Part shown: piece by piece, positions 24,247 through 46,148 of the stretch
How the letters are laid out: every line of letters begins with the position of its first letter
How positions within the stretch are numbered: position 1 is the stretch's first letter
Assembly: GCA_026625165.1 (NCBI GenBank)
Contig: CP112999.1
Coordinates: 248,001 to 312,000, forward strand
Direction of reading: 5' to 3'
Source: Methanoregula sp.
Lineage (GTDB): Archaea > Halobacteriota > Methanomicrobia > Methanomicrobiales > Methanospirillaceae
DNA: 64,000 bases
Notes under the pieces: model-generated
Databases searched by the model: none
What the model was told of the DNA's origin: nothing
Seen by the model: the letters and a program-made list of their open reading frames with translations, nothing else
Position numbers and translations under genes: made by a program

Positions 24247-25032
24247 TCACGTCACCGGGAGCACGGAAATAATCTTCCTGACAACATTCTCGAAATCCTC
24301 ACCCGAACACCCGATGGTGATACCGGCATACTTCTCGTACAGCGGGACCCTCTGATCATACATCTCGCGGAGGTTTTGGCCCGCGACAAGGACAATCCCC
24401 CGGGTCGTGATGTTCCTGAGCCTTCTTTCCATCTCCTCAAAGGAGATCTTCAGGTACACGACGACGCCACCATTCTTCAGGTGCTCCATCGCTTTCCTGC
24501 TGAACACAACACTGCCGCCCGTAGCAACAACGGCATTGTCAAAATGCCGGGACAGGACCGTCCTCTCTTCAAGGTCCAGGAACGCACGGGGCCCGTCCGT
24601 GTCGATAAAATCGAAAATCCTGTTTTCATCCGATCTGGATTTTCTCAAAAGGTTTTTTGCGACAGCCGGAGCAAACGGCCAAGAGAAGAATCAAAGGGAT
24701 TCTACGAATTGTCGAACCACGAAGTGGTGAGACTGGAGAAGAACTCATCAGAGTTCTCCGAGTAGTGTTAACACAACAAATTCCTAAATAGACCATGCGG
24801 CGTAATTCTTACGCCGCAGTCTCACATCTTCGATGTGGGACTTTCTCCGCCTCTTTTGAGGCTGCGATCGGTCGTACTTGGTGTGTTCAACACTATATCC
24901 TGCAGGAGCCGCCCGGAATCCTCCTGGACCACGATATCGGTATCGATGAATGTCTTTTTTGGCCTTTGCAAGGATCACTCCCACGGTGCTCTTGCCTGCG
25001 CCGGGCATGCCGATGAGGATGATGTTGGTCAT
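24247..25032 (-). pseudogene. Shikimate kinase-like gene, frameshifted and interrupted by hairpin arrays
   Basis: The N-terminal part (from the ATG at 25032) encodes NIILIGMPGAGKSTVGVILAKA, with the P-loop of shikimate kinase. A frameshift at the AAAAAA run near 24965 then puts KKTFIDTDIVVQ, with the conserved D of the shikimate site, in another frame up to about 24894. The C-terminal part resumes at about 24606 (DTDGPRAFLDLEE, ATGGSVV, then YLKISFEEMERRL to the end at 24247). The roughly 290 bp between, where the family needs almost nothing, hold two hairpin arrays and other palindromic DNA. The gene cannot make a normal enzyme. Confidence 0.8.
24680..24862. repeat. Hairpin arrays inside the shikimate kinase pseudogene
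   Basis: Six stem-loops follow one another. Stems: AGAATC/GATTCT (24687-24703), ACCAC/GTGGT (24716-24728), AGAACTC/GAGTTCT (24740-24757, loop ATCA), GCGGCGTAA/TTACGCCGC (24797-24817, loop TTC), CACATC/GATGTG (24823-24837, loop TTC), GCCTC/GAGGC (24849-24862). The first three read in the minus orientation and the last three in the plus orientation of the family consensus, with spacer AGTCTCA in both. Confidence 0.75.
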
Positions 25033-40302: not shown

Positions 40303-40352
40303 GTTCTGCAGAACCCCGCGGACGAGAAGAATGACGGTGTCATTCTTCGCTG
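40303..40352 (-). repeat. Hairpin array (GAAGAATGAC stem)
   Basis: On the minus strand: GACAGC, then stem GAAGAATGAC/GTCATTCTTC (40326-40348 on +, 3-nt loop), then TCGTC, then GTTC-TGCA-GAAC (40303-40314). The GACAGC-GAAGA start and TCTTC-TCGTC end match those in the arrays at 43507-43611 and 43848-43902. Confidence 0.75.
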
Positions 40353-40384: not shown

Positions 40385-40451
40385 GGTTCAAAAACGCCCG
40401 GGAACAACGGATGGCGGAGTCATCCTTCACGATTCCCGGGCCGTGTGAACC
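40385..40451. repeat. Three-tier nested inverted repeat
   Basis: GGTTCA/TGAACC (40385-40390 with 40446-40451) encloses CCCGGGAA/TTCCCGGG (40397-40404 with 40433-40440), which encloses GGATG/CATCC (40409-40413 with 40421-40425). It lies about 110 bp upstream of the gene at 40560, so it could be an RNA structure in the leader or a boundary of inserted DNA. Confidence 0.6.
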
Positions 40452-40497
40452 TGTTTAAAAAACAGAAAAAATGGAGGTTCTGACGATCTCGGAACTC

Positions 40498-40543
40498 GAA
40501 GAATTCTCGCGAATTCTTCTCAACCTCGAGGTCTGAAGACCTC
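40498..40543 (+). repeat. Hairpin array just upstream of the unknown gene at 40560
   Basis: Stem GAAGAATTC/GAATTCTTC (40498-40519, loop TCGC), spacer TCAACCTC, then stem GAGGTC/GACCTC (40528-40543, loop TGAA), followed by TTCGGAGACAAC. It fits the array consensus and ends 17 bp before the start codon, so it would be in the mRNA leader or just upstream of it. Confidence 0.75.
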
Positions 40544-40559
40544 TTCGGAGACAACAAAC

Positions 40560-41063
40560 ATGGCAGATTTCGTACAATCAAGCGAAACAAAGAACGCGGT
40601 CCGCACCCTTGCGGCCCCGATATCGGACGTGACAACGTTCGATGGTATCGTACAGCAGGTCATCGCCACAAACCCCTTCGGGTGCGTGGACTACATGACC
40701 GCAGGAACAAACCACCCGGGGGTTGAGAAGACCCGGGAAGCACACACGGTACGGCTCGTGTACCAGGACACCAACGCAAAGACCACAGGGACCGGTACCC
40801 ACCGGTTCAACAGCGTGGCCGGCTACACGGCCGGCTCAGCCGTCCTGATGGCGGCAGCCGAACTGACCGCAGCACACACGGGCACACCGGCACATGACCC
40901 GGCGGACGACTCGTTCTCCACAACGGTCCGGTGCCACGACCCCAACGGCGAGCTGTACAACGTGACGTTCAGCCGCGACCGGGTCACGGTCCAGTCCTAT
41001 TCGGACGACGCGATCCTCGCAAAGGTCGAGACCTGGGCGGACACCGTGCCGCAGCTGGCCTGA
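40560..41063 (+). CDS. Unknown 167-aa protein, intact parent copy of a duplicated pair
   Basis: 167 residues, soluble, rich in Thr, Ala, Asp and Val, with no family I recognise. It opens MADFVQSSETKNAVRTLA and its last 75 residues recur, interrupted by a hairpin array, at 43338-43662. The alternating strand pattern (TVRLVYQD, FSTTVRCHD, LYNVTFSRDRVTV) suggests a beta-rich fold. It is followed after 12 bp by a 39-residue membrane protein gene. The pair might encode a virus-derived or surface component; that is inference. Codon use is strongly GC-rich, unlike the DISARM genes. Confidence 0.65.
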   Translation: MADFVQSSETKNAVRTLAAPISDVTTFDGIVQQVIATNPFGCVDYMTAGTNHPGVEKTREAHTVRLVYQDTNAKTTGTGTHRFNSVAGYTAGSAVLMAAAELTAAHTGTPAHDPADDSFSTTVRCHDPNGELYNVTFSRDRVTVQSYSDDAILAKVETWADTVPQLA

Positions 41064-41075
41064 GAAGGAAGGATC

Positions 41076-41195
41076 ATGGACAACGAAGTTCTGATAACGG
41101 CAGCATTCCTCGGTGCAGGATTGCTGGCCTACGTCATCATCCCCGGTCTCCTCGTCATCTGGGACCGGGTACTCGACTACATGGGCGGGTACTGA
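41076..41195 (+). CDS. 39-aa single-helix membrane protein, intact parent copy
   Basis: 39 residues: MDNEVLITAAF, then a hydrophobic helix through AYVIIPGLLVIW, ending DRVLDYMGGY. GGAAGGATC precedes the ATG. It is clearly translated, because its sequence is conserved as protein in the second copy at 43678-43938 despite two hairpin-array insertions there. It probably sits in the membrane and works with the 167-residue protein encoded immediately upstream. Confidence 0.7.
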   Translation: MDNEVLITAAFLGAGLLAYVIIPGLLVIWDRVLDYMGGY

Positions 41196-41224
41196 GAAGA
41201 GAACGAAGTGTGAAATCAACCGGG

Positions 41225-41265
41225 GCAGGGTTAACTCCCTGCTCCTCCGTTTTTATTTTTTTGAT
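41225..41265 (+). terminator. Terminator of the gene pair
   Basis: GCAGGG (41225-41230) pairs with CCCTGC (41237-41242), followed by T-rich DNA. The preceding GTGAAATCAACCGGGGCAGG is shared with terminators near 43984, 44608 and 46057, so this is a repeated cassette. Confidence 0.65.
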
Positions 41266-41402
41266 GAGTCCAGACCGGGAACGGGTACGGAGTTGACGCG
41301 ACCGGCCATGACCTATGCGCATCCCGGCAGACCGGCCAACTCGCAACATTTCAAATAGTTCCAGGGAAATATATTGCTGACAGGAAACCAGAGGTGAACA
41401 GT

Positions 41403-41555
41403 ATGGCAAAACCCATCGAGATTGGGCTGGTGCTGGAGGGGGATGACGCCCGGAGGTTCCACAAATACATGGAAGACCCGAAGATTACAAAAGAAGGGCG
41501 TAAACTCATCCGCGAAGCCATCAAAATCGCAAAGAAAGAAAAACTCTATGCCTGA
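41403..41555 (+). CDS. Small antitoxin of the GNAT module
   Basis: 50 residues, MAKPIEIGLVLEGDDARRFHKYM then a basic helix ending KKEKLYA. The start fits the strand-helix pattern of ribbon-helix-helix or DUF1778-like antitoxins, which pair with acetyltransferase toxins. Its last codons overlap the toxin start (ATGCCTGA), so the two are translated together. Confidence 0.65.
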   Translation: MAKPIEIGLVLEGDDARRFHKYMEDPKITKEGRKLIREAIKIAKKEKLYA

Positions 41556-42102
41556 GCTTACCTATTTTGATTTGGTTTTCAAGCCTCTCGATGCAACTGA
41601 CGATGTATCTTCTTTTCATTCAACTGAGCAGGAACTGGACGATTTTTTAACAGAAGATGCGCTCAATAACCAGGCGAACCGGCTCTCTGCAACATTTCTT
41701 GCCTTCTGGAATGACGACGTGGTTGGATACTTCACATTGATCAACGACAGCATTGTCGCAGAAGCGGTTCATGAGTCGGACCGCGAACCCACCTGGGAAT
41801 ACCGCAAATATCCTGCAATCAAGATCGCCAGGATGGCACGCCACCGCGATTTCGATGGTTATGGTATCGGTACCAGCATGCTCCTCCGGATTTTTATCAT
41901 CGTCCTGCATGTCTCGCAATTTACCGGCTGCCGTATCATAACGGTTGATTCCAAGCCCGGCGCAGCCGGCTGGTACCAAAAGAAGGGTTTTACCCTCGCA
42001 CAGATGAAACCGCGTGAAGATACTGTACCACTCTATATGGACTTCCACCGGTTTGTGTCCGAGGAAGAGCAGCGTGTACTAACATCCCTTCACGACTTTT
42101 AA
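41548..42102 (+). CDS. GNAT acetyltransferase, probable toxin
   Basis: 184 residues starting MPELTYFDLVFKPL. The acetyl-CoA loop is RHRDFDGYGIGTSMLLRIF (near residues 97-115) and the fold ends with the usual SKPGAAGWYQKKGF strand. GNAT toxins such as TacT acetylate the amino group of charged tRNA and stop translation; family and gene arrangement (small antitoxin overlapping upstream) support this, though the exact substrate is inferred. Confidence 0.8.
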   Translation: MPELTYFDLVFKPLDATDDVSSFHSTEQELDDFLTEDALNNQANRLSATFLAFWNDDVVGYFTLINDSIVAEAVHESDREPTWEYRKYPAIKIARMARHRDFDGYGIGTSMLLRIFIIVLHVSQFTGCRIITVDSKPGAAGWYQKKGFTLAQMKPREDTVPLYMDFHRFVSEEEQRVLTSLHDF

Positions 42103-42179
42103 AATAATTTTCCTTGTCCTTTGCGTAACAAGCCCACGCCGGTTGTGGGGCGGGACAGGGAAATTGCAAAAAAAGAAAG

Positions 42180-42287
42180 TTACGCCCGGGACCTCTTCTT
42201 CCTGCGTTCCTTAATCCCGGCAATGACCTTGTCAAAATCCTTAGGAAGCCACTGCTTACGCTCTTTTGTATAATCTTTCATCTGCAT
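42180..42287 (-). pseudogene. C-terminal fragment of the PIN-module antitoxin family
   Basis: 35 codons, MQMKDYTKERKQWLPKDFDK onward. They match the C-terminal half of the neighbouring antitoxin at 42316-42531 (DYTKERHEWLPDDLD). The N-terminal half is missing, so this is probably a remnant of a tandem duplicate. A perfect hairpin ACTGAAC/GTTCAGT (42301-42320) lies just upstream. Confidence 0.55.
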
Positions 42288-42315
42288 GGATGGCCTGCCG
42301 ACTGAACGGATCGGT

Positions 42316-42531
42316 TCAGTGGTGCGGTTTTTTCATCTTTTGTTTTTTCTGCCGTTCAAGCAATCTTCCCTTTACGGTATCGAGATCGTCAGGCAGCCAC
42401 TCATGACGCTCTTTGGTATAGTCCCCGGTCCCGGTCTCGTAGCTCTGGATGAACCGTGCCATGTCGACCGGCCCGAGTGTCTTTGTAAGTGCGTGAATAC
42501 CCTCTTTCCGTATTTCACTGATTGTTTTCAT
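42316..42531 (-). CDS. Antitoxin partner of the interrupted PIN gene
   Basis: 71 residues, MKTISEIRKEGIHALTKTLG, then DMARFIQSYETGTGDYTKERHEWLPDD and a basic tail. Small proteins with this GDYT-ERHEWL signature are encoded next to PIN-domain toxins in many prokaryotes. It overlaps the PIN gene by 17 bp. Related fragments occur at 42180-42287 and 46983-47057, so the family has been duplicated and broken repeatedly in this island. Confidence 0.65.
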   Translation of the reverse strand: MKTISEIRKEGIHALTKTLGPVDMARFIQSYETGTGDYTKERHEWLPDDLDTVKGRLLERQKKQKMKKPHH

Positions 42532-43030
42532 CGGCTGACACCTCCATGAGCCAGTGCACCGGGTTCTCCACCCGGACTGTTATTGCCGGATCTCTCCTGG
42601 CAAAACTAATAATCCTATTGTCAGTTGTAAGAAGAATAGCTTTTCCGCTCTGTGCGCATGCAAGATGGAGCGCATCATATAATTTCAGGCCCGATCTCTG
42701 GAATTTTGTCACGTGCTGGAATATCGTCTCATCCAATTCGATATACTCGTTAATAAGCGCCAGTTTCTGTTCTACTTTCATCCGCTTCTCGACATCCGGT
42801 ATCAGGGTAATCTCATCATCGATAGCAACACTCCCGACGAGTTCCCAGTCACGGGTACACCGGTCAAGGATTGATAAGATCGCTTCAGCCTATGAGTGGG
42901 TCGTCAGGACCCCGAAGATGAGAAGATTTCATCAGAAATCTTCGCTATCAAGCCGGATTTTTTTATTCTGGAGATCGTCAAATGGCCGGCACAGGCAGCA
43001 TACATCGAGGTAGATTTTTATGTGTGCCAT
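42515..43030 (-). pseudogene. PIN-domain toxin gene interrupted by a hairpin array
   Basis: Read from the ATG at 43030: MAHIKIYLDVCCLCRPFDDL to KKIRL, the usual start of this PIN family (catalytic D in YLDVCC). Then 60 bp of hairpin array (42890-42949), then AEAILSILDRCTRDWELVG to the end with the remaining PIN acids (KLYDALHLACA, LLTTDNRI). Relatives read RLEAEA directly, so the net gain is about 57 bp. The frame before and after is the same, but the array contains stops TGA, TGA and TAG in that frame. The remaining downstream frame (42515-42781) alone would be a truncated protein. Confidence 0.8.
42890..42949 (-). repeat. Hairpin array inside the PIN toxin gene
   Basis: Sense order (minus strand): GATAGC, stem GAAGATTTC/GAAATCTTC with loop TGAT, spacer TCATCTTCG, stem GGGTC/GACCC with loop CTGAC, then ACTCATAG. 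On + coordinates the stems are 42922-42943 and 42898-42912. This is one of the clearest members of the family. Confidence 0.85.
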
Positions 43031-43062
43031 TCTGGTTGTCTATTCTCCTGCGCTGCCAATAA

Positions 43063-43308
43063 ATGATCGCATCTGTTCTTCTGGACAGATCCCATGTCAA
43101 AAAGTATGATCCCCGGTTGATGATAGTATCCGGTGTAGAGTCCCAGTACTATACCACAAGCGAGGTAACCGCCGTTTTTGAGGATACCCTTGCAAAACAG
43201 GTCCCGCGTTTCCTCGTGAAATACCAGGGCGTCGTGGACCGTCTTGATACGAAAAAGGTACGGAAAATTAAGGATACGTATCTGGAACTGACAAAAAGAA
43301 ATGAATAA
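43063..43308 (+). CDS. Unknown 81-aa protein, perhaps truncated
   Basis: 81 residues with a protein-like body (YDPRLMIVSGVESQYYTTSE, then VTAVFEDTLAKQVPRFLVKY, then a lysine-rich helix to the end). The first ten residues look weaker, and the promoter region is shared with the divergent PIN gene, so a 5' truncation is possible. No family recognised. It ends 29 bp before the breakpoint of the duplicated segment at 43338. Confidence 0.45.
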   Translation: MIASVLLDRSHVKKYDPRLMIVSGVESQYYTTSEVTAVFEDTLAKQVPRFLVKYQGVVDRLDTKKVRKIKDTYLELTKRNE

Positions 43309-43337
43309 CCGTTTTGCCCGGACGACATTGTCCCTGT

Positions 43338-43662
43338 AGCCGTCCTGATGGCGGCAGCCGAACTGACCGCAGCACACACGGGCACACCGGCACATGACCC
43401 GGGGAACGACTCGTTCTCCACAACGGTCCGGTGCCACGACCCCAACGGCGAGCTGTACAACGTGACGTTCAGCCGCGACCGGGTCACGGTAACGTCCTAC
43501 TCGGACAGCGAAGACCTTGCGGTCTTCTCGTGCTCCGGGTCTTTCGACCCTACGCAATTCGAAGCCCGATGGCTTCTCCTGTCTCATTTCTGAAGAAATT
43601 CGACACAACGCATCCTCGCAAAGGTCGAGACCTGGGCGGACACCGTGCCGGCCCTGGCGTAG
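43338..43662 (+). pseudogene. 5'-truncated second copy of the 167-aa gene, interrupted by a hairpin array
   Basis: From 43338 the sequence matches 40838-41063 closely (VLMAAAELTAAHTGTPAHDP on). After TCGGAC (43506) it carries 105 bp where the parent copy has six (net 99 bp), then resumes with ILAKVETWADTVP in the same frame and ends at TAG. The array contains an in-frame TGA at 43591. The N-terminal 93 codons of the parent are absent; the breakpoint is sharp. Confidence 0.85.
43507..43611 (+). repeat. Hairpin array with four stems, insertion relative to the parent copy
   Basis: Stems in order: GAAGACC/GGTCTTC (43510-43527, loop TTGC), GGGTC/GACCC (43537-43550, loop TTTC), GAAGCC/GGCTTC (43561-43576, loop CGAT), ATTTC/GAAAT (43586-43599, loop TGAA). 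Spacers are TCGTGCTCC, TACGCAATTC, TCCTGTCTC and TCGACACAACGC. The parent gene at 41001-41020 shows the empty site. Confidence 0.9.
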
Positions 43663-43686
43663 GGGAGGTCGGAGATCATGGAAAAT

Positions 43687-43785
43687 GTTGAGGTTCGCAG
43701 AGCCGAAACAGGAGAATGTCGAAAGTCATCAGACTTGAGACATGAGAAGACTAAAAAAGTCTTCGAAGAACCCGGTTCTTCGACC
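43687..43785 (-). repeat. Hairpin array, stop-free in the host frame
   Basis: On the minus strand: stem built from GAAGAACC/GGTTCTTC (43765-43781), then GAAGACT/AGTCTTC (43746-43764), spacer TCATGTCTCA, stem AAGTC/GACTT with loop TGAT (43722-43735), then TCGACATTCTCC. The spacer and final motif recur almost unchanged at 46067-46128. Confidence 0.85.
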
Positions 43786-43847
43786 GAAGTGCAGATAACA
43801 CTGATCTTCCTCGGCGCCGGAATCCTGGCGTACGTGGTCATCCCCGG

Positions 43848-43902
43848 GTTTTCGTATTCCGAACCGTAGGTGAGGACGAGAAGAACGAAGTTCTTCGCTG
43901 TC
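43848..43902 (-). repeat. Hairpin array, second insertion in the 39-aa gene copy
   Basis: On the minus strand: GACAGC, stem GAAGAAC/GTTCTTC (43880-43896, loop TTC), TCGTCCTC, then TTCG/CGAA (43851-43863). It replaces 13 bp of the parent sequence by 55 bp, a net gain of 42 bp. Confidence 0.8.
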
Positions 43903-43983
43903 TGGGACAGGGTCCTCGATTACATAGCCGGGTACTAAAAAGAACGAACGGGTTGTTCACATTCGTGTGAAGATCGAGCCATC

Positions 43984-44016
43984 GGCAGGGGAGAGATCCC
44001 CTGCCCCATTTTTTTT
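43984..44016 (+). terminator. Terminator after the second gene pair
   Basis: GGCAGGGG (43984-43991) pairs with CCCCTGCC (43998-44005) around AGAGAT, followed by ATTTTTTTT. Same cassette as at 44608 and, interrupted, at 46057. Confidence 0.75.
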
Positions 44017-44048
44017 AAGGGACAAATTCAGCTGGCCACACAAGCTCC

Positions 44049-44054
44049 TTTATA
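44049..44054 (+). promoter_or_regulatory. TATA box of the RelBE-like module
   Basis: TTTATA lies 33 bp upstream of the antitoxin ATG at 44087, and AGGA three bases before the ATG is a possible ribosome-binding site. Confidence 0.5.
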
Positions 44055-44086
44055 GTCTCCAACATAAACACTGGTGTGATACAGGA

Positions 44087-44287
44087 ATGACCGCAATACC
44101 CCGGAAATATATCACCGACGCCCGGAACCAGAAGCAGGCGGTAATTGTCGATCTTGAAACCTTCAACCGGATGGAATCCATTATCGAAGATAACGGTCTT
44201 GCAAAATTCATGGAGGAAGCAGAAGGGGATGAAACCCTGTCAGTCCACGAAGCCAGAAAATTCTATAAATCATTGAAAAAGGATTGA
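44087..44287 (+). CDS. RelB/Phd-like antitoxin
   Basis: 66 residues, MTAIPRKYITDARNQKQAVI then VDLETFNRMESIIEDNG, the pattern of Phd/RelB-type antitoxins (a YI-D strand, then a helix with ETF-R-E), ending in an acidic-basic tail that binds the toxin. It is followed after one base by a RelE-family toxin gene. The start at 44087 is favoured by the TATA spacing; a longer frame from 43967 runs over a terminator. Confidence 0.75.
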   Translation: MTAIPRKYITDARNQKQAVIVDLETFNRMESIIEDNGLAKFMEEAEGDETLSVHEARKFYKSLKKD

Positions 44288-44288
44288 G

Positions 44289-44561
44289 ATGCCGGCCTGC
44301 AAATATAAGAAAATTTTCCTCAAAGACCTGGCATCGTTGCCCAAACGTTATCGCTCCCGGATCGAGCGGCTGGTGTTTGATGAGATCCCGGCCCCGGAGG
44401 ATATTTTTCTCGATTTTGATATCCACAAGATGAGAGGATATGATTATTACTACCGCATTCGTACGGGAAAATACCGCATCGGATGCAAGGTAACCACAGA
44501 GAACGGGATCATCTTTTACCGGGTAAAGAGCCGGGAAGAAATTTACCGGGTCTTTCCTTGA
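44289..44561 (+). CDS. RelE/ParE-family toxin
   Basis: 90 residues with the RelE core: FLKDLASLPKRYRSRIERLV, then HKMRGYDYYYRIRTGKYRIGCKV and the final YRVKSREEIYRVFP. The arginines and tyrosine near the C-terminus are those used for mRNA cleavage on the ribosome in RelE relatives. Clear operon with the antitoxin gene one base upstream. Confidence 0.85.
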   Translation: MPACKYKKIFLKDLASLPKRYRSRIERLVFDEIPAPEDIFLDFDIHKMRGYDYYYRIRTGKYRIGCKVTTENGIIFYRVKSREEIYRVFP

Positions 44562-44607
44562 GTCATAAAAAGAACCGCACTTTCCATTCAGGGTGAAATC
44601 AACCGGG

Positions 44608-44638
44608 GCAGGGGAGAGATCCCCTGCTCCATTTTTTT
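44608..44638 (+). terminator. Terminator of the RelBE-like module
   Basis: GCAGGGG (44608-44614) pairs with CCCCTGC (44621-44627) around AGAGAT, then CC and ATTTTTTT. The preceding GGTGAAATCAACCGG is shared with 41209-41224. Confidence 0.75.
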
Positions 44639-44776
44639 AAAGATCTTTTTGGGGACCCCAAATATTCAGATATAGTACACATGCAGATTTTTCAAACGCG
44701 CTCTCACTGATAATCTCCCTGTCCTATCACGAGAAAAACGATACGGAGAGGTGGGTGATGGCTCCTGAAAAAAAGC

Positions 44777-45103
44777 TTAATCCAGATCCAGCAGGTCCCG
44801 TATGAGGGCGACAATTGCCAGCCTCTGCTGTTCACTGATTGCGCCGATCCGGTGCTGGAACCGGTCCCGGTCCAAAGCAACGATCTGGAATACAAGTGCG
44901 ATACTCTCATCATCAAGGCCGTTGTGGGGTGTCGGTGTAATGGTAAGCGTGTGGGAGAATCTGGCAGTACTGAGCGTTGTCGTACATGGTACAGCAATGG
45001 TCAGGCCATTTGCATCTCCTACGATAATCGCGGGGCGGATTCCCCTCTGCTCATGCCCTTTTGCATCTGAGAGATCCACAAGCCAGATATCGCCGTTCTT
45101 CAT
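44777..45103 (-). CDS. PemK/MazF-family toxin
   Basis: 108 residues: KNGDIWLVDLSDAKGHEQRGIRPA with the GDIW strand and RP-A motif of MazF/PemK, then VPCTTTLSTARFSH and a C-terminal helix (EQQRLAIVALIRDLLDLD). MazF-type toxins cleave single-stranded RNA at short sites. No standard small antitoxin is beside it; instead a 176-residue protein gene ends three bases upstream and an HTH gene precedes that. Confidence 0.85.
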   Translation of the reverse strand: MKNGDIWLVDLSDAKGHEQRGIRPAIIVGDANGLTIAVPCTTTLSTARFSHTLTITPTPHNGLDDESIALVFQIVALDRDRFQHRIGAISEQQRLAIVALIRDLLDLD

Positions 45104-46056: not shown

Positions 46057-46148
46057 GGGGCAGGGGAGAATGTTGAAGGTCATCAGACCTGAAACATGAG
46101 AAGAGTTCATCAGTACTCTTCGAACTATCCCCCCCCCTCCTTTTTTTT
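46057..46148 (+). terminator. Terminator cassette split by a hairpin array
   Basis: GGGGCAGGGGAGA (46057-46069) and the CCCCCCCC run (46129-46136) followed by T8 correspond to the two halves of the terminator seen intact at 43984-44016 and 44608-44638. The middle is replaced by a hairpin array (46067-46128), an insertion into non-coding DNA. Confidence 0.65.
46067..46128 (-). repeat. Hairpin array inside a terminator
   Basis: Plus coordinates: stem AGGTC/GACCT (46077-46090, loop ATCA) and stem GAAGAGT/ACTCTTC (46100-46121). On the minus strand it reads GATAGTTC, GAAGAGT stem, TCATGTTTCA, AGGTC stem with loop TGAT, then TCAACATTCTCC, nearly the same spacers as the array at 43687-43785 but with other stem bases. 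Confidence 0.85.

What the first reader, a model, noticed from the sequence alone, without database searches (positions are those of the whole stretch)
43338..43938. Before-and-after evidence: three array insertions in one duplicated segment
The segment 43338-43938 is a partial copy of 40838-41195. Its parent has no arrays in the coding parts; the copy has one in the first gene (43507-43611) and two in the second (43687-43785 and 43848-43902). Everything else aligns closely, so the arrays are insertions and not ancestral sequence. Three independent insertions within 600 bp of a recent copy, and none in the parent's coding sequence, suggest that the second copy is a tolerant or preferred target.
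Basis: seen in the sequence. Interest (0 to 1): 0.75.

Follow-up and report, generated by a model that had tools for sequence, protein, structure and literature searches.

The report
Archaeal two-hairpin elements inserted in genes
Three short DNA pieces that fold into pairs of hairpins have been inserted into a worn-out gene duplicate of a Methanoregula-like archaeon, and they belong to a previously uncatalogued repeat family of this archaeal order whose folded shape is kept although its sequence keeps changing.

Summary
The segment 43338-43938 carries three insertions (net 99, 99 and 42 bp). The syntenic locus of a related species (L064) has the same truncated copy without any of them, and no other homologue found carries them, so they are insertions. 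The 'arrays' are units of a structured interspersed element. Hairpin A is N4-GA-stem/loop/stem-GA-N4, with a 2x2 tandem GA/GA internal loop. An RGA linker joins it to hairpin B, GAAGnnn/loop/nnnCTTC. Stem letters change freely but stay paired. About 44 units (26 loci) lie in this 2.17-Mb genome. Matches occur in 58 of 232 genomes of the order and in no genome outside it among 295 sampled across the phylum; Rfam has no match. Five insertions are seen against empty sites, and near-identical copies sit in unrelated flanks elsewhere, so the family disperses. No Y1 transposase or reverse transcriptase is found in the window's genome or in most element-rich genomes; the mover is unknown. The copy is not recent: the truncation predates the species split, and its near-identity to the parent is gene conversion. 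'Tolerant target' is plausible. 'Preferred target' is only suggested, for the whole gene family rather than this copy.

The parts
43338..43938 (+). truncated copy of the two-gene operon (last ~74 codons of the 167-aa gene plus the small gene), partly overwritten by the parent through gene conversion
   Evidence: syntenic with L064:3377-3729; 6/165 mismatches to parent, 20/165 to the orthologous copy
43508..43606 (-). insertion 1 (net 99 bp), two A-B units on the minus strand, in gene 1 of the copy; brings an in-frame TGA
   Evidence: (hits 43508-43556 and 43559-43605)
43685..43783 (+). insertion 2 (net 99 bp), A hairpin, A-B unit and extra B hairpin, after codon 2 of gene 2 of the copy; frame kept, no stop
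   Evidence: (hits 43686-43715 and 43717-43766)
43857..43898 (+). insertion 3 (net 42 bp), exactly one A-B unit, in gene 2 of the copy; brings an in-frame TAG
   Evidence: (hit 43857-43898)
40560..41063 (+). parent gene 1, 167 aa, multi-copy family of Methanomicrobiales, no arrays inside
41076..41195 (+). parent gene 2, 39 aa, one hydrophobic segment, no arrays inside
40496..40550 (-). A-B unit in the leader of the parent operon, also present in the orthologous leader of L054; L055 has a unit with other, still paired stem letters
40303..40350 (+). further inserted hairpin unit in the parent's leader, flanked by TGTCCAAAGG / TGTCAAAGG; absent from L054 at that place
46071..46123 (+). A-B unit between genes
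24710..24761 (+). A-B unit at the 3' end of an open frame

Best explanation
The arrays are one to two units, with some partial ones, of a small, non-coding, dispersed element of Methanomicrobiales. Shown: each unit is two adjacent hairpins on one strand, A (outer stem, tandem GA/GA, inner stem, loop mostly GNA or NTCA) and B (GAAG...CTTC) joined by RGA. Stem letters are replaced in pairs, while the unpaired GA/GA, the linker and the GAAG/CTTC clamp are kept. Units are gained at new sites singly or in tandem: three here, one in a paralogous gene at G000:1279 kb, one in the parent's leader. Near-identical longer copies lie in unrelated flanks in G048. Inferred: the folded single strand, not its sequence, is what the copying machinery recognises. 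I think the strand is more likely DNA than RNA (PyGAPu tandem GA and GNA triloops are, from general knowledge, very stable in DNA; GNRA loops are absent from A). Units would be copied into new sites when DNA is single-stranded, by a host enzyme or an unrecognised trans-acting one, often at TGTC- or CTTCGA-like microhomology, and then multiply in tandem. The duplicate operon kept three because it was already dispensable.
For: Empty orthologous site for all three. Fourth filled/empty pair at G000:1279 kb: 52 bp = one unit, absent from the G000 paralogue and from G005. Fifth in the parent leader with a 9-10 bp flanking repeat. GA/GA enrichment. Pairing in units chosen only by unpaired anchors: A 34 of 90 against a shuffled mean of 2.3 (maximum 6); B 87 of 103 against 32 (maximum 47). 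YGAR on both strands in 16 of 18; A loops GNA 7 of 8 triloops, NTCA 7 of 9 tetraloops, GNRA 0. Dispersed copies in G048: 92-93% over ~174 bp at three places, 75 bp at 100% at two, with unrelated flanks. Tandem identical units. Census.
Against: No mobilising enzyme was identified. No constant target-site duplication: TGTC-like at site 1, 7 bp TCTTCGA at 1279 kb, 9-10 bp in the leader, none at site 2. The inserts have no close source copy among the sequences held (at best about 90% over ~30 bp). The DNA-versus-RNA argument rests on loop types recalled from general knowledge, and B hairpins do include a few GNRA loops. Part of the sequence used was fetched with the covariance model, so that test is not fully independent; the seed test is circular for pairing.
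Confidence: 0.62

Rival explanations
1. Ordinary MITE or REP-type element moved in trans by a known transposase (Y1/RAYT or DDE).
For: Small, non-coding, dispersed, hairpin-rich; one site has a 9-10 bp flanking repeat.
Against: No Y1 transposase in the window's genome or in the other element-rich genomes searched (G004, G005, G038, G048, G060). No conserved terminal inverted repeats or constant target-site duplication; stems differ from unit to unit while REP/MITE copies share sequence. DDE families were not searched.
Confidence: 0.15
2. Copying through RNA: transcripts of the units are reverse transcribed and inserted, as proposed for Allomyces double-hairpin elements.
For: Structure conserved rather than sequence; duplications at the borders are inconstant.
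Against: No reverse transcriptase domain (PF00078) in G000, G005, G048, G038 or G060; G004 has one. A donor enzyme from a virus or neighbour cannot be excluded.
Confidence: 0.1
3. The units are not mobile as such: they arise or are reshaped by replication slippage and hairpin-templated repair, which keeps the arms complementary.
For: Explains paired changes, tandem growth and microhomology at junctions.
Against: Hairpin-templated repair would also turn the unpaired GA/GA into pairs, yet it is the most constant feature; near-identical dispersed copies with unrelated flanks exist.
Confidence: 0.13

Closest known systems
Double-hairpin elements / repetitive hairpin-forming elements of fungal, algal and sponge mitochondrial DNA (Paquin et al. 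2000 as cited in PMC2800124)
   Same: Two adjacent hairpins, dispersed, inferred mobile, no constant flanking duplication, mover unknown
   Different: Mitochondrial; tandem GA/GA, RGA linker and GAAG/CTTC clamp not known to me from them; no sequence comparison was possible
Rickettsia palindromic elements (reviewed in PMC10969869)
   Same: Palindromic pieces inserted inside protein-coding genes; net length a multiple of three at all three sites here
   Different: Inserts 1 and 3 carry in-frame stops and the 1279-kb insertion is 52 bp, so no open-frame rule; other organism group
REP/REPIN elements with RAYT (Y1) transposases
   Same: Short interspersed hairpins, mostly between genes, sometimes in tandem
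   Different: No Y1 transposase in the element-rich genomes tested; stems not conserved in sequence
BOX elements of Streptococcus (from general knowledge)
   Same: Modular structured repeats with a variable number of internal units
   Different: BOX modules are conserved in sequence; not compared by sequence here

Membership tests
REP/REPIN-RAYT | RAYT-type Y1 transposase in the genome | tested here: not met
   PF01797: none in G000, G004, G005, G048, G038, G060; control genomes positive
REP/REPIN-RAYT | conserved palindrome sequence with a tetranucleotide such as GTAG at its foot | tested here: not met
   stems vary freely between units; constant letters are GA/GA, RGA, GAAG/CTTC
MITE | terminal inverted repeats and target-site duplication of constant length | tested here: not met
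   five filled/empty pairs, flanking repeats of 0, ~4, 7 and 9-10 bp
MITE | a matching autonomous DDE transposon | not tested
   DDE families were not searched
Rickettsia palindromic element | insertion inside coding genes that leaves the frame open | tested here: not met
   net 99, 99, 42 bp, but TGA and TAG in inserts 1 and 3 and 52 bp at 1279 kb
Mitochondrial double-hairpin element | two adjacent hairpins, dispersed, with empty sites in relatives | tested here: met
Mitochondrial double-hairpin element | sequence or descent relation to the mitochondrial elements | not testable with these tools
   no alignment of those elements was at hand
Retroelement | reverse transcriptase in the element-rich genomes | tested here: not met
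   PF00078 absent from G000, G005, G048, G038, G060
Any Rfam family | covariance-model match over the units | tested here: not met
   only DUF3800-X elsewhere, at gathering score and at E<=1

The most novel reading that the evidence does not exclude
A mobile module recognised by shape alone: a two-hairpin single strand with tandem sheared G-A pairs whose stem sequence is free to change, so that new sequence variants keep arising and dispersing in one archaeal order without a transposase of their own.
Probability: 0.3. Interest if true: 0.85.

Novelty: new variant of a known kind. Interest (0 to 1): 0.62.

Why it matters
Short hairpin repeats are common, but a prokaryotic family in which folding geometry, down to a 2x2 GA/GA internal loop, is kept while stem sequence turns over is unusual, and sequence-based repeat finders miss it (Tandem Repeats Finder reported none of these arrays).

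Tried and rejected
CRISPR-like array: rejected, no constant repeat with unique spacers; the units are hairpins with changing stems. Simple tandem repeats: TRF finds none here. Known RNA family: no Rfam match. REP/RAYT: no Y1 transposase. Retroelement: no RT in five of the element-rich genomes. 'Length a multiple of three means selection on frame': three of three here (1 in 27 by chance) but contradicted by stops and by the 52-bp insertion at 1279 kb. CGACA as target-site duplication: not exact. Loop counts were faulty (lazy pattern, palindromic anchor) and were replaced. Literature searches found no description of this family; the library holds only open-licence papers. The idea that the 167-aa gene moves the units was dropped because the gene is also multi-copy in genomes without units.

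Full report
Setting. The window is bases 248001-312000 of a single-contig 2.17-Mb genome (G000). Relatives named by the genome scan are mostly Methanoregula sp. MAGs: G004 = PtaU1.Bin051, G002 = a Lake Pavin sediment MAG, G005 = an Alinen sediment bin, and L064 is a contig of the Lake Pavin MAG 52_8.

Observation. Window 40560-41195 holds a two-gene operon: a 167-aa protein (no Pfam, NCBIfam or PDB match) and a 39-aa hydrophobic protein. Window 43338-43938 is a copy lacking the start and first 93 codons of gene 1. Relative to the parent it has three extra blocks.

Before and after. L064 is syntenic with this part of the window: 41210-42567 (92%), 43130-43510 (90%) and 43984-44559 (90%) match L064 382-1746, 3176-3550 and 3766-4341. 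It holds the same truncated copy between the same neighbours, reading TACTCGGACAACGCGATCC, ATGGAAACCGAAG and CCCCGGGTTACTCGTAATCTGGGAC across the three sites, without any insert. Net lengths in the window are 99, 99 and 42 bp. All other homologues read through site 1 and site 3 uninterrupted. So the inserts came after the split of the two species. The truncation itself is older than the split.

What the arrays are. Folding the inserts and other array-like places shows the same unit. Hairpin A: about 4 bp, then GA opposite GA, then 3-7 bp, then a loop. Linker: one base plus GA. Hairpin B: GAAG, 2-6 more pairs, a loop, CTTC, then GA or GC. In 464 kb of this genome GA/GA is the leading 2x2 internal loop in such hairpins (11, plus 11 seen as TC/TC from the other strand), against 14 loops of scattered types in shuffled sequence. 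When units are picked only by the unpaired anchors, A is fully paired in 34 of 90 against 2.3 expected and B in 87 of 103 against 32. Some of those sequences had been fetched by the model, so this is strong but not fully independent; the seed alignment's covariation is circular because the seeds were chosen as hairpins. The tandem GA stands in PyGAPu context on both strands in 16 of 18 A hairpins; A loops are GNA (7 of 8 triloops) or NTCA (7 of 9 tetraloops), with no GNRA.

Census. A covariance model of ten units finds 44 hits at E<0.01 in G000, forming 26 loci; eight hits lie in the window, five of them in the copy. In a 61-genome set, 24 genomes match, with up to 87 hits in G048. In the order, 58 of 232 genomes match at E<=1e-4; in a phylum-wide sample of 295, all 18 positives belong to this order. 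Presence is patchy within a genus: G048 is rich, while G011 of the same genus has none. Rfam has no match.

Dispersal. Two more filled/empty pairs were found. At G000:1279 kb a 52-bp insertion equal to one A-B unit sits in a gene whose G000 paralogue at 1281 kb and relative in G005 lack it; TCTTCGA flanks it. In the parent's leader, ATATGTCAAAGGGG of L054 and L055 appears as ATATGTCCAAAGG-unit-TGTCAAAGGGG. The leader also carries an A-B unit shared with L054; at the matching leader of L055 the A stem letters differ but still pair, though whether that unit is inherited or a separate insertion is open. In G048, pieces of about 174 bp containing the unit are 92-93% alike at three places, and a 75-bp piece is identical at two, with unrelated flanks. 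Identical units also occur head to tail.

Mechanism. Shown: insertion, unit boundaries, conservation of geometry, dispersal. Inferred: that the folded strand is recognised and that it is DNA. The latter rests on general knowledge that PyGAPu tandem GA and GNA triloops are very stable in DNA; it is a lead, not a test. The known movers tested are absent: no Y1 transposase in the element-rich genomes, no RT domain in five of them. Flanking repeats vary (0, ~4, 7, 9-10 bp), which argues against one transposase with a fixed cut and fits microhomology-assisted copying.

Why here. Gene 1 of the copy is a remnant and inserts 1 and 3 bring stops, so tolerance is enough to explain survival of three inserts. 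Units also lie close to other members of the 167-aa gene family: 4 of 9 loci within 300 bp in G000 and 2 of 7 in G048, rising to 6 of 9 and 4 of 7 within 600 bp, against 0.13-0.20 expected by uniform placement. Two of the G000 loci are duplicates of each other, one is the finding itself, and uniform placement ignores the preference for intergenic DNA, so a target preference is a suggestion only.

Comparison. By working and anatomy the closest known kind is the mitochondrial double-hairpin element, for which mobility without flanking duplication was reported (PMC2800124 and the reference there). Insertion in genes recalls Rickettsia palindromic elements (PMC10969869), but the open-frame rule fails here. 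It is not filed under either.

Noticed in passing
window 40560-41195 and homologues L001-L020: 167-aa protein plus 39-aa hydrophobic protein: multi-copy family (10 matches in G000; 37 of 41 genomes have it) without any Pfam, NCBIfam or PDB match. A structure model (pLDDT 87) gives only weak matches to triphosphate-tunnel proteins (best E 3e-3, TM 0.26).
   Followed up: partly
window 40400-40440; L055 and L063 leaders upstream of the same gene: The leaders of the 167-aa gene share another hairpin, GGATGACTCCGCCATCC (one variant GGGTGACTCCGCCATCC), in three species; possibly a leader regulator or another module.
   Followed up: no
G048 2275403-2275573, 2658723-2658896, 2709522-2709692 (L150, L152, L153): In G048 the A-B unit is part of longer modular elements that begin near GGTAATGCAG and end in GGGGGG, with interchangeable hairpins.
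   Followed up: partly
G000:205748-206348 and 1586658-1587258: Two similar copies of the 167-aa gene with downstream arrays that score identically, apparently a duplication that carried its array along.
   Followed up: no
L037:12586-12659 (G000 about 1282.6 kb), minus: Match to Rfam DUF3800-X RNA, 58 bits, in a region dense with these units and decayed genes.
   Followed up: no
window 42515-45103: Cluster of toxin-antitoxin-like genes around the copy: PIN domain, RelB-like, ParE-like and PemK/MazF-like.
   Followed up: no
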